In this document: piece after piece, positions 22,301 to 59,200 of the stretch
Layout: every line of letters starts with the position of its first letter
How positions within the stretch are numbered: the stretch's first letter is position 1
NCBI GenBank assembly: GCA_903813345.2
Contig: CAIIXF020000006.1
Location: 32,372,710-32,436,709 of the forward strand
Length of the DNA: 64,000 bases
Direction: 5' to 3'
Source of the DNA: Owenia fusiformis
Taxonomy: Eukaryota > Annelida > Polychaeta > Sabellida > Oweniidae
Notes under the pieces: model-generated
Told to the model about the DNA's origin: nothing
Seen by the model: only the letters and a program-made list of their open reading frames with translations
Database searches by the model: none
Program-made: the position numbers and the translations under genes

Positions 22301-25300
22301 GGTTAAATCTAAAAAATATTCTTTTGACAATTGCTACTCATTTATACCATTTTAAATCATGATTTTCGTTCACAATGTGGCTACTTTCATTATGAATCGG
22401 TGTATTCATTGGATTCAAGGCAGGCTGGTGATTATAAGGCAAAATAGGTAAAAACACTGGCAGAATTGCTCGCATCTCGAAATAACAAGACTACATCAAA
22501 CAGTTCGTACAAAAAAGGCGTTTGCGGGTGCCTGAAGATAGGGTATATAGTATGGTAAGTTATCTAATTATCCCATCGAACGAAGTTCGGAGGGATATAG
22601 GGAACGCCTCCGTCCGTCCGTACATACGTACGTCCGTCCGGGCAATAACTCAAATACCGTTGGCTCGATTTTGTTCATATTTTGTACACATATACCCTAT
22701 GGGGGTAGAAGTTCTGCTCGAAAGCCGATTTTCAAAATGGCCGCTCATTTCAAAATGGCGGCCATTTTAGTGCCGATTTTACAGTAATTTAGGTACAATA
22801 TGTAAAACTGTAATAGCAATATGTTTTTAGTGTAAAAAAATTATAAAGGACATTAATAAAGCTACAAATGTAGATATTAAAAAAACACATGGCAGCCATC
22901 TTGAAAAATGGCGGCCTTTACTCGTTATTTTACGATTTTTGCTGTAACTCGAAAAGTAGTGGGGCGATTTTGTTCATATTTGGTATGTGAATACTATAAA
23001 CATTGCACACTGTCTACAGACACTTTTGGTAGAAGGCGGCCATTTTTCAAAATGGCCGCCATTTTAACATATTTTACTATAACTCGAAAAGTAGTGGAGC
23101 GATTTTGTTCATATTTGGTATGTGAATACTATAAGCATGGCACACTGTCCTATGACACTTTTGGTAGAAGGTGGCCATTTTGAAAAATGGCCGCCATTTT
23201 AACGTAGTTTACTATAACTCGAAAAGTAGTGGAGCGATTTTGTTCATATTTGATATGTGAATACTCTAAGCATGGCACATTGTCTAATAAAACTTTGGGG
23301 AGTAGTCGGCCATTTTGAAAAATGGCCACCATTTTTATGTGTGTTATTTTACAAGTACATGTGTGCGATTTTTCAAAAATTTTATAGGTGGCTACTTAAA
23401 AGCATATTATTTCTTCTGATGACAACTTGGCTAGTGAGCAACCATTTTGAAAATGGTGGCCTTTCTGGTGTGTTTTATGATATTTGCTATATATTTAGTT
23501 TGTAAAAATGCCAGCCATTTCTGTTCGATGGGATTCGCTACGCTTTGGCGTTGCCGTTGTTCTGGTTGTATTATATTTACATAAAGTCAAGTGAAAGCAA
23601 TTTCATAACCAAATTTACAAACCTACCTCTACTCTTTTCCATAAATCAAGTCCAAATGGTTATGAAAAACAAGTCTGGAACGATTTACGTTGGGTAGTAT
23701 CGGAGACCGTGTGGTTGAAAACTAAATATTCGCGCATGCGCGATCGAGGTAGGGTAGTGTGAAAACACCGTTTAAATTGTTGAATATAGGTCAGCAGGAA
23801 GTCAAGTAAGGCACTGAATAAATTGTGAAATTCAATTGGATCATAAGAATGGAGAGAAAAAGTTAAGTTTTTAAAGGTTTAAACCCGGGTGGATGGATCC
23901 AACGGCAGTCCCTTAGGATAGTAAAGCACAGGCGGATACACTCACCGGCAGCATGCTAAAGGTTAATATAGAAAGTGGACGTGACCAGCTTTAATTTGAC
24001 ACCAAATTCAAGATGTTTCAAATTAAAATGCCCTCGCAAGAGGTAGTTGAAATATTGGTAATTTGTTTGATGGTCAGGTGATATGGTCTACGATGGATCT
24101 AAATTGACTGCCCCGCGTCACATGTCACGTGACACTATATTAAATTTGTTGAAAAATGAAAGTGATAGCGATCGTTTTTAATCTTAAACTTAACATATGT
24201 GGGGGCTTTAAGAAAGTTGATTATCTGTAATATAAACATTGATGTAGTGACATTCACTTTGTTGCAGGTACACACTGTTAGTAGGCAAGCCACCATTTGA
24301 GACAAGTTGCCTAAAAGATACATATCAACGCATCAAACGTAATGAATACCATATACCCAGCACTAGAGTTAGTACATCTGCTAAGAACCTCATAACAAAA
24401 TTGCTCAAGTCTGATCCTGGATCCCGTCCAAGCATGGCTGATATATACAATGATGACTTCTTTACCGAAGGTAAGGTTTTACAGGGAATCTTTTAGGTTC
24501 TGATTCCCTTGTGTGTCCCCTTTTTACTAATACAATATACTTGTACAGTCTTTAGAATCATGGTATTAGCCTTGGCCATTGATCTTATGTATATACGCAC
24601 CTACTTTTGATGAATTGATGGAGCAATGGTTATATCAAAAATTAAATTGTCTATAACTTGCCAAATATTAACTTTTTCGTGTCATATTTGAAAATTTAAT
24701 GACTTTGGGTGTTAGAAAAATTAACCACAATGATCTTGACTGACACTAAGCTATAAGTACTACAGTTTGAATGTATGTGTATTTTAGGTCTCCTACCTGT
24801 ATCAATACCTACCAGTTGTTTAACTATGGCCCCCAGGTTCGACATGATGGTAAGACGTGAATCAATGACCTCCAGGAAACCTCTTATAGATATTAATTGT
24901 AAGTGTGCCTCTGAATTTGCTGTTTTAAAAAAGCATTTTTCTAAATGATGCTGATAAAAAATTTTGCTCATTCAAATGAATTTACATTTTTGCATTTGTT
25001 TAAAGGCCCCCAGAAAAGTTAACACCACATTATTGTTTTTTGTTACATTTATCAAAAATGTTATATTACACTGTATGTACAGAGATCGCCTAATATTAAA
25101 AGTGGGTGATCAAAGACTCGACAAGATGCGCAAAATTCAAATATCGTGTAACGGTTATTTTTAAAAGATTTATTTGTGTTCATATTACACGCTACTGGTG
25201 ATTCAATGAGGTTATGTAGGCACAATAACACCCATATGCTTTGAAAAATATATATTACTTTGACCATTTTTCGTATATATGATCGATTTTACGATGTAAA

Positions 25301-28300
25301 GATATAAATGCGATATAATATGTGCTGTTTTATTTAAAAAGCTTTAAAATATCAAAAACAAGAGAAGATTTTTACTCACTTTTTACTCAATTTTTTATAC
25401 TTAGGTAGGGATTTGGGCTTCCATTTGACCATGATAAAGTTCACGTTTCCTCTTAAATAACATGGAATAAATATTTTAACACAGAAATGAATGGATCAGC
25501 CTATAGCGTGAGTTTCAGCAGATCATACACCCACAACTATATGCTTTAAAGAGAAGAAAAATGGGGTTTCATGCAAAATGTATGTCCAAATTAAAATAAA
25601 CATGTACATCACCGTTCATTGATTCATTCGATTAAATGGTCACTGTATGCGTATATTTTGTTATTCTGTCTTTGTTTGAATACAATACGATATGTACACT
25701 GTACACTGCTAAGAGAAAAACCTCTTGAAGCGTAACACCTTATAAATGGAACAGTTTTTAAAGTCACATTTCAGTCCATTTATTTTACCCTTTGATTCCA
25801 AGGTATGAAAACTTTACACCTTGGCTTCCAAGATGATTGTCGAATTGTAATGCAAGAATTGAATAAATCATAAATGAAAATGTATGTCAATGTATCACCC
25901 ATTTTCATGATTGTGGTTGTTATGAACATGGGGTCTCATAATAAACTTATTAAATCTGAATTGTACACTATCTGTTTCATTGGGGAGTTAAATCATTCTT
26001 TTGCAGCAAGGTATCAATAAGTTATATAAAAACGTAATGACCTTCAGTAGATGCCAGTAGTCAGTTCCCAGTTTCACCACGAGGTGGCTAACTTGGGTCA
26101 TATGTAAATGATAGGTATAGGGGAAAGCTGCTCTATAGTTCAATATTCAGAAGATTTATTGATCAATTTTCAACTAAGGTGTATAGGTGATTAGCTTGAA
26201 AATGTTAGAATTGTATGTAATCGAATGCAAAATAAACGCCCAGTAGGCGTTTTTAGAGAAACAAAGTGTGAAATAAATACTATACTATTCTAAACAACGT
26301 TATGTGGATGGGACTGAGGAAAAGTTCAATCAGATATTTTGGATGATTTCATTCGATTATTGTCAATCACTGAAATTGTCATAAATTCATCACTTTCTAC
26401 AATTATGTGTTTATTTATTGATTTCACTTCATTTGGTATTATTCCAGAGAAATTTCTTGTAATCATTCTAAATTTGCCTCTATTTTCAATAATCTTTCTC
26501 ATCTTCATCTCTTCATCTTCATGGTGTTCTATAAGGTGATTTATAATGTTTTGAAATTTAACAGTTCGTAGTGAAGGACAATAGAAACATGTAAATCCAA
26601 CCAATCTGAAATGCAAAGAACATATCATTAGAATCCACATGGTAAAATCACTCACTTGGCTGATCATAATTTTTTTTCATAACATCCTCCTTACTCGATA
26701 CTGAAGGGGAGTTGGAACGTCTGATATGCATGTAATGTTAAGTTTTATGTATATTAACCATAGATGATATTGGTTTTGTGGTTTTGGCAATCTAAAAACA
26801 GAAAATTCTGTGAAAAATACATTTTCGTTCGACGGTTTTTGATTTTGCTTCTTTTATCAACTCAGTTCAGGTATTTCGGTTGATTTAATCACCGAATCCT
26901 GTTACCAAATGAATCTTGAGTCTCTTATACAGCATATGGAATACCATCTGTAGGTAAAATGACTTTAAACTGGTAAAGAGAAGACAAACAAACATACCTT
27001 TCCTCCGACATTTTGGATTTTGCGCATCTTGTCGAGTCTTTGATCACCCACTTTTAATATTAGGCGATCTCTGTACATACAGTGTATTATGTTATTGTAA
27101 TTCCAAAAAGTTTTTCTTTGAAAAATTGAACTAATAAGAAGTAAAAGTTGAGTTGTCACACACATCTATAATAAATAGCAATAATTCATAAATGCCAAGC
27201 AAACAATCTAATCTATTTTGTGTTGAAAAATTAGTAAGTTTGTTTTGAAAAGAACATGGAAATCAACTCAATAAGCGCAGAAAATCTTCATCACCCACTG
27301 CAAGTTCAAGTTATATTTGATCAGAAATCTCAGTTCTTTTTACTCAGAAAAGGATTGTAGGGTATGATTATTAGGCAGATTACATTCAACATTTTACACA
27401 TGCTTTATAATTACTTAAACATGTTAAATGCTTATCTAATGCATTAGCGGCAAAGGTTTAATAACCCTATAAGTGAATATGAAGGGTCTGATGAAATACA
27501 TCTCATAAATGAATACTTGTTTCCAGCCCAAAATTCTCGCCCCTCTTCAACCATAGAGAAGGACAGTGATAAAAACAATGTAGCTGGTGATTTGGGCAAA
27601 CGTGATAGGGAGGAGCCCGCTGATTACTGGCTTTCTGATCTCCTTGCTTGTTTGACATCGGTTGTTGCAGCTAAACCAGCTGATATCGTTAACTCAAAGG
27701 AAGGTATCCACGAACATTATTTTTTCTAGTTTTAGAATATTTTTGGCTCACATCATTCCTTGTCATGTCTGTTTTCTAGAAATCCCTGAAGTGCACACTT
27801 TATTCCAGGAATACTAAAGATTTTTACAATAATGTATTATTTTCTATAAGAATGGTTACCATTCTTATTATTTGGGAGAATTTAAACATTTTTCACTCAT
27901 TCTTGCACTTTGAATCATTAATAACTTCACCAATTTATAACATATTGTGAATCTTTTGGGAGATATTGTAAGGAATAGATTGGTATTATACATGTTGCTT
28001 GTTATTTTGTCACCCCCTATAGATCAGATTCTGCCTTTAAACAACTGGACACCTTTAGGATTAGGTTGTCATTTAGGGCTTGGCTATCATAAATAACTGA
28101 ATGAAATACTTCAAACAATAATAGTAGAAATGGTGGAGGTGACTTGGAAGCTGTACAATGGCTACCGTTTCAAACCAGCAGCAGCTAATTTTACATATGA
28201 GAAAAGAGGATATCTTTTGCATGTTTCAGACGATGCCCTCTACCCAACAGCTACCCCTATATACTGGATTAGTAAATGGGTGGACTACTCTGATAAATAT

Positions 28301-58802: not shown

Positions 58803-59200
58803 TAAACTAAATCAATTGAAATATAATTATTAAAGAATGAGGACCTTGTATTTTACTCTGGACGAGGGTAGTGGCCATGTCTTGGCTAGTTATGCATTAA
58901 CGTTTAATACTGTTTTGTGGATAAAAATAATAATGAATATATGTTAACGTAGCACTAAACCATGGGCTTTCAATTAGAACAGATACTTTTAAAGAATATA
59001 GTTACATTTAAAGAATAGGCCCCACGAATAGATATTGAATATTAGGACTCGTTTGATGAAACGATCGTTGTAATAATTCTAATAAACCTAGAAATCAATC
59101 AACGATTAAGTAAATTGACAAATTATTAACCGGGCAATTCACAAAATATGAATGGAATATTGGCAGGTACTTTTCATATTTAAATGAGTTGCCCATAGAA

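What the first reader, a model, noticed from the sequence alone, without database searches (positions are those of the whole stretch)
25064..58807. Several TIR families share CAC...GTG ends and 5-bp target duplications (Transib/RAG-like signature)
Sequence shows CACTGTATGTACAG ends with duplications TATTA and GACAT (25069-27084, 36468-38404), CACAGGCTGG ends with TGCAT (51205-53334), and CACGGGGTACC ends with TAAAC (58383-58802). 41425-42681 also starts CACGGTG, without a confirmed duplication. Five-bp duplications with CAC termini are known for Transib and the RAG-like ProtoRAG group. Three unrelated non-autonomous families with this signature in 34 kb suggest an active transposase source in this genome.
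Basis: partly seen in the sequence, partly recalled or inferred. Interest (0 to 1): 0.65.

Follow-up and report, generated by a model that had tools for sequence, protein, structure and literature searches.

The report
Jumping genes with built-in DNA exonuclease
The window holds small dead-end transposons that leave 5-base duplications, and their relatives elsewhere in this genome lead not to a RAG/Transib enzyme but to a large P-element-like transposase with a phage-type exonuclease inserted in its catalytic domain, a combination I found in no paper searched.

Summary
All four elements have exact CAC...GTG inverted ends and exact 5-bp duplications; chance pairs in the window score far lower. 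I add a fifth (6990-7295), and 41425-42681 belongs to a family whose other copies show 5 bp in 26 of 27 pairs. Genome-wide, 5 bp is the rule in five families. They are not all unrelated: 51205 and 58383 share related ends.

Transib/RAG is not supported. The duplications are AT-rich (14-24% GC, C favoured at -6), opposite to the GC bias reported for Transib and ProtoRAG. Family 1 carries leftover N-terminal exons of a transposase. Following them led to one complete 15,673-bp copy with 605-bp inverted repeats, CACCCT...AGGGTG ends and TATTA on both sides. It encodes a roughly 1,550-residue protein: zinc finger, split RNase H-like core resembling Drosophila P transposase (Z 13.6 and 8.4 in two models), and a lambda-exonuclease/YqaJ domain (Pfam E 1.3e-8; Z 13.4) between the first and second catalytic aspartates. 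The CxxC signature of the Transib group is absent.

Best reading: window elements are non-autonomous derivatives of this P-like, exonuclease-bearing transposon group: direct for family 1, inferred from termini for the others. The nuclease's role is inferred.

The parts
25069..27084 (-). Family 1 non-autonomous transposon, CACTGTATGTACAG ends, 5-bp duplications TATTA at 25064-25068 and 27085-27089
   Evidence: 68-bp exact inverted ends; coding remnant reads on the minus strand
26998..27011 (-). remnant of transposase exon 1 (ATG TCG GAG GAA AG followed by GTATGT donor)
   Evidence: read; splice sites inferred, not tested by transcripts
26368..26605 (-). remnant of transposase exon 2, zinc-finger region ([38 protein letters not shown]...)
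   Evidence: ORF 26326-26676; 33% identity to the N terminus of the complete transposase, E 3.5e-10; genome search
36468..38404 (-). second family 1 copy, duplications GACAT at 36463-36467 and 38405-38409; truncated zinc-finger remnant 37729-37926 (-)
   Evidence: 93.7-97.5% identical to 25069-27084
51205..53334 (.). CACAGGC-end non-autonomous element, duplications TGCAT at 51200-51204 and 53335-53339; arms of about 600 bp, 86% complementary
50498..53468 (.). older copy of the same family interrupted by 51205-53334 (pieces 50498-51204 and 53335-53468); gives an empty site
58383..58802 (.). CACGGGG-end short element (MITE), duplications TAAAC at 58378-58382 and 58803-58807
   Evidence: same end pattern as 51205
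41425..42681 (.). CACGRTGCCCATGTCAAGC family element; its own duplications are lost (GTTAT versus GTACA)
   Evidence: family has 5-bp duplications in 26/27 pairs elsewhere

Best explanation
The window elements are non-autonomous, cut-and-paste DNA transposons mobilised in trans by a P-element-like DDE transposase that carries a lambda-exonuclease/YqaJ domain inside its RNase H-like core. The complete copy found is G000:C11:10089561-10105233 (15,673 bp, 605-bp inverted repeats, TATTA duplications). Proposed cycle: the zinc-finger N terminus and a SAP-like region bind the ends; the D404/D957/E core cuts at CAC...GTG and joins the ends to target DNA with a 5-bp stagger, preferring a C-(A/T-rich 5)-G target, giving the 5-bp duplications. 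The built-in exonuclease probably trims or resects 5' strands, either of the transposon ends (P transposase cuts the two strands 17 nt apart) or of the donor gap, favouring repair that restores a copy. Shown: ends, duplications, coding link for family 1, protein architecture. Inferred: catalysis, the role of the nuclease, and the link for the CACRGG, CACGRTG and CACTGG families, which have no coding remnant.
For: Family 1 carries exons homologous to the transposase: N terminus 33% identity, E 3.5e-10; F1 copy C4:31808352-31810514, with both ends and ATATA duplications, contains an exon 45% identical to residues 269-350, E 7.8e-20. Two other TIR+5-bp families carry the same zinc-finger exon: CACCCTGGACG (L018, L043) and CACCCTACACATAG (L021, L044). 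The complete element has both TIRs, TATTA on both sides and the intact ORF. YqaJ: PF09588 E 1.3e-8; lambda exonuclease Z 13.4, 188 aligned; its DG...ExK residues kept in the copies that cover them. P-like core: 6p5a Z 13.6 over 249 residues, Z 8.4 in an independent model, PF21787 profile positions 66-128 at E 0.0014 on the piece after YqaJ; D, D, DxxH and E motifs conserved. Common AT-rich target with C at -6, p 1e-3 to 1e-7, in five families.
Against: Only one complete TIR-bounded copy was found, so it could in principle be a composite (two inverted elements around a gene), though the shared 5-bp flank (chance about 0.0016) and repeats longer than the 418-bp arms of the short elements argue against it. 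No TIRs were found around the seven other transposase copies within the stretches I could fetch; some may be old copies or host genes. AlphaFold models are low confidence overall (pLDDT 55 and 60). The PF21787 hit is below Pfam's cut-off, and hhalign against two P-like proteins of this genome was not significant. No coding link for the 51205, 58383, 41425 and 6990 families.
Confidence: 0.74

Rival explanations
1. The families are non-autonomous Transib or ProtoRAG-like elements moved by a RAG1-related transposase.
For: CAC ends and 5-bp duplications, as reported for ProtoRAG.
Against: No RAG1 (PF12940) match in the genome, though the control was uninformative. Duplications are AT-rich where ProtoRAG and Transib show GC bias. 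The transposase linked to family 1 has no CxxC between second D and E in any of three long proteins and resembles P transposase and lambda exonuclease.
Confidence: 0.04
2. Family 1 depends on the YqaJ/P-like transposase, but the CACRGG, CACGRTG and CACTGG families belong to a different, unidentified superfamily (for example hAT5, also with 5-bp duplications) and the similar target preference is coincidence.
For: No transposase remnant in those families; hAT families with 5-bp duplications exist (PMC12730594).
Against: Same CAC start, same duplication length, same AT-rich target with C at -6 in all five families tested.
Confidence: 0.2
3. The 15.7-kb element is a composite: two inverted short elements that carry a passenger gene, so the YqaJ protein is not the transposase of these ends.
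For: Single complete copy; 851-bp short elements with the same ends are very common (976 exact ends).
Against: The outer flanks share TATTA; inverted repeats of 605 bp exceed the 418-bp arms of the short element; other TIR+duplication families independently carry the N-terminal exons of the same protein.
Confidence: 0.08

Closest known systems
P element / THAP9 superfamily (Drosophila P transposase, 6p5a)
   Same: Split RNase H-like core: D, D, HLLxNxR and E motifs in the same order, a large mostly helical stretch before the E; best structural match of one model; CA...TG ends
   Different: 5-bp AT-rich duplications instead of 8 bp (PMC7776569); a YqaJ exonuclease sits between first and second D; no THAP domain detected, another N-terminal zinc finger; protein of about 1,550 residues
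Galileo (P superfamily, Drosophila)
   Same: Long inverted repeats and foldback-like short derivatives
   Different: 7-bp duplications (PMC3573991); no nuclease domain known to me
ISL2EU (PHIS)
   Same: Transposon that also encodes a YqaJ exonuclease
   Different: There YqaJ is a separate second protein, the transposase is PIF/Harbinger-like, and duplications are AT dinucleotides (PMC4482050)
Transib / ProtoRAG
   Same: CAC ends, 5-bp duplications
   Different: Different transposase class; GC-biased duplications (PMC8289069) versus AT-rich here
Lambda exonuclease / YqaJ family
   Same: Domain fold (1avq Z 13.4) and DG...ExK active-site residues
   Different: Here inserted in a eukaryotic transposase

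Membership tests
Transib / RAG-like (ProtoRAG) | 5-bp target duplications | tested here: met
Transib / RAG-like (ProtoRAG) | CAC...GTG ends (RSS-heptamer-like) | tested here: met
   CAC is shared, but bases 4-7 differ between families (TGTA, GGGG, AGGC, CCTA)
Transib / RAG-like (ProtoRAG) | GC bias of duplications | tested here: not met
   14-24% GC in 5 families against 34% in the window
Transib / RAG-like (ProtoRAG) | CxxC and HxxxH motifs between second D and E of the transposase | tested here: not met
   no CxxC in three long linked proteins (definition from PMC12730594)
Transib / RAG-like (ProtoRAG) | RAG1/Transib transposase gene in the genome | tested here: inconclusive
   PF12940 no match, but the control genomes also gave none; no Transib model was on hand
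P element superfamily | P-type split RNase H fold | tested here: met
   VIA-align Z 13.6 (249 residues, 4.3 A) and Z 8.4 in a second model; PF21787 E 0.0014, below cut-off. Low-confidence models, so a moderate rather than strong result
P element superfamily | 8-bp (or 7-bp) duplications | tested here: not met
   5 bp
P element superfamily | N-terminal THAP domain | tested here: not met
   no THAP hit in Pfam scans; a different zinc finger
P element superfamily | GTP-binding insertion and GTP requirement | not testable with these tools
   needs biochemistry; a mostly helical stretch precedes the E
ISL2EU | AT dinucleotide duplications and separate YqaJ ORF | tested here: not met
   5-bp duplications; YqaJ is inside the transposase ORF
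YqaJ / lambda exonuclease | fold and PD-(D/E)xK residues | tested here: met
   PF09588 E 1.3e-8; 1avq Z 13.4; DG and ExK kept in the copies that cover them

The most novel reading that the evidence does not exclude
A previously undescribed lineage, perhaps a superfamily, of eukaryotic DNA transposons whose P-like transposase has a phage-type recombination exonuclease built into its catalytic domain, makes 5-bp AT-rich duplications, and has supplied well over a thousand short CAC...GTG elements in this genome; the nuclease would couple cutting to end resection and homologous repair.
Probability: 0.55. Interest if true: 0.75.

Novelty: new variant of a known kind. Interest (0 to 1): 0.62.

Why it matters
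CAC ends with 5-bp duplications are easily taken as a Transib/RAG sign; here they belong to a different transposase class, so terminal signatures alone can mislead searches for RAG ancestors. A transposase with an internal lambda-type exonuclease would be a natural fusion of excision and DNA-end processing, testable in cells, and parallels the separate YqaJ protein of ISL2EU, which suggests that end resection has been recruited more than once by DNA transposons.

Tried and rejected
RAG1 family search of the genome: nothing, control uninformative. Searches of PDB by sequence with the transposase and its profile: no meaningful match. Foldseek runs: no significant match; the P and exonuclease matches appear on VIA-align re-scoring of Foldseek's own candidates, and no RAG or Transib chain was among the listed rows, which excludes nothing. 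hhalign against two canonical P-like proteins of this genome (L052, L053): not significant with that thin alignment. Looking for long CACGGGGTGCC pairs to find an autonomous CACRGG copy: none above about 2.2 kb. Element L001 (4.7 kb between CACTGTATG ends) encodes no transposase. Literature searches for YqaJ inside a transposase: only ISL2EU-type separate proteins; Repbase itself was not searchable, so an unnamed entry may exist.

Full report
OBSERVATION. The window is G000:C6:32372710-32436709 of a 498-Mb eukaryotic genome (organism not named and not identified here). All four stated elements have the stated ends and 5-bp duplications. In a whole-window scan for CAC...GTG pairs with identical 5-bp flanks, they score 20/20 matching end bases; a fifth, 6990-7295, scores 19/20; all others score 13/20 or less. 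The 51205-53334 element lies in an older copy of its own family; taking it out with one TGCAT rejoins the older copy, which supports the 5-bp duplication without a second genome. Two points of the finding need correction: 51205 and 58383 share one end pattern, so they are not unrelated, and the 41425 family does have 5-bp duplications elsewhere.

GENOME-WIDE. Flanks of paired ends give exactly 5 bp in 20/23 (CACTGTATGTACAG), 27/31 (CACCCTATGCAG), 20/20 (CACGGGG), 5/5 (CACAGGC) and 26/27 (CACGRTGCCC) pairs (chance per pair about 0.0016). The duplicated bases are AT-rich (14-24% GC; window 34%) and the base just outside is often C (35-52%; binomial p from 1e-3 to 1e-7 against 17%) in all five families. 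This is the opposite of the GC bias reported for Transib and ProtoRAG (PMC8289069).

FOLLOWING THE CODING REMNANT. Family 1 keeps, on the minus strand, ATGTCGGAGGAAAG|GTATGT (26998-27011) and an open frame after TTTCAG (from 26605 downward) that encode the start of a protein with a zinc-finger-like segment. A genome search with this stretch gave 150 matches: family-1 copies, other TIR families with the same exon (L018, L043 CACCCTGGACG; L021, L044 CACCCTACACATAG, each with 5-bp duplications), and one 1438-residue open frame at C11:10095272. That frame has a YqaJ domain (PF09588, E 1.3e-8, residues 603-755). Longer family-1 derivatives also carry the next conserved region (C4:31809300, C1:11795066, C8:37889364).

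THE COMPLETE ELEMENT. Around the 1438-residue frame lie inverted repeats of about 605 bp, 95% identical, starting CACCCTATGCAGACAGAGCC, with TATTA on both outer sides: G000:C11:10089561-10105233, 15,673 bp. A C-terminal exon (element 10759-11118) joins through GAGCCAG|GTACTT and TTGCAG|GAATCC to give DEPGIPAIKRV, matching the uninterrupted reading in relatives. An antisense 277-residue C2H2 zinc-finger frame lies at element 1719-2549. Short elements with the same ends are very common (976 exact ends). Seven further transposase copies, about 26-52% identical in aligned parts, were found, none with ends in the stretches fetched.

PROTEIN. The alignment of copies shows the order: (I/V)DGKK, GDxDLxGxE, then YqaJ (GxxxE, SPDG, ExKC), then xDGQ(W/F), then a SAP-like stretch (by eye), then DxxH(L/I)(L/F)xNxR, FPPPG...EG, and xExFF. 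An AlphaFold model of one copy (pLDDT 55) aligns best with Drosophila P transposase (Z 13.6, 249 residues, 4.3 A) and also with lambda-type exonucleases. A second model, of the copy in the complete element (pLDDT 60), aligns with lambda exonuclease (Z 13.4, 188 residues) and P transposase (Z 8.4). The Pfam P-type RNase H profile matches the piece after YqaJ at profile positions 66-128 (E 0.0014, below cut-off), as expected if YqaJ interrupts that domain between the first and second aspartate. P transposase uses D230, D303 and E531 (PMC7776569). The Transib/CACTA-group signature (CxxC and HxxxH between second D and E; PMC12730594) is absent (no CxxC).

MECHANISM. Shown: ends, duplications, target preference, coding link for family 1, domain order. 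Inferred: the core cuts and joins the ends with a 5-bp stagger; the exonuclease trims 5' strands at the ends or resects the donor gap. P transposase leaves 17-nt staggered ends (PMC7776569), for which such a nuclease would have a plausible substrate, and ISL2EU transposons encode YqaJ as a separate protein (PMC4482050).

STATUS. It works like a P-type cut-and-paste element and shares its core, but fails P features that were tested (8-bp duplications, THAP domain), and its core is interrupted by YqaJ, so I call it a new variant rather than a P element. Transib/RAG membership is rejected for family 1 and unlikely for the rest. Present activity is not shown.

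Noticed in passing
   Followed up: partly
window 42730-49365: Non-LTR retrotransposon in three long frames: GDSL-like lipase frame, endonuclease frame, reverse transcriptase frame (PF00078, E 4.9e-25).
   Followed up: no
G000:C11:10089561-10105233, element 1719-2549 minus strand: Antisense 277-residue C2H2 zinc-finger protein inside the complete element; cargo or regulator unknown.
   Followed up: no
L028:2577-6980 and L029:2484-6149: Intact frames of 1467 and 1221 residues without detectable ends nearby: possible host genes derived from the transposase.
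   Followed up: partly
L052, L053 and 11 other places: Canonical P-like transposase genes (PF21787, best E 3.6e-20) coexist in this genome; their duplications were not measured.
   Followed up: no
G000:C4:15771642, C5:35545963, C6:11218768 and others: CACGGGGTGCC ends preceded by the same flank TATATTTT at six places, suggesting insertion into, and amplification with, another repeat.
   Followed up: no
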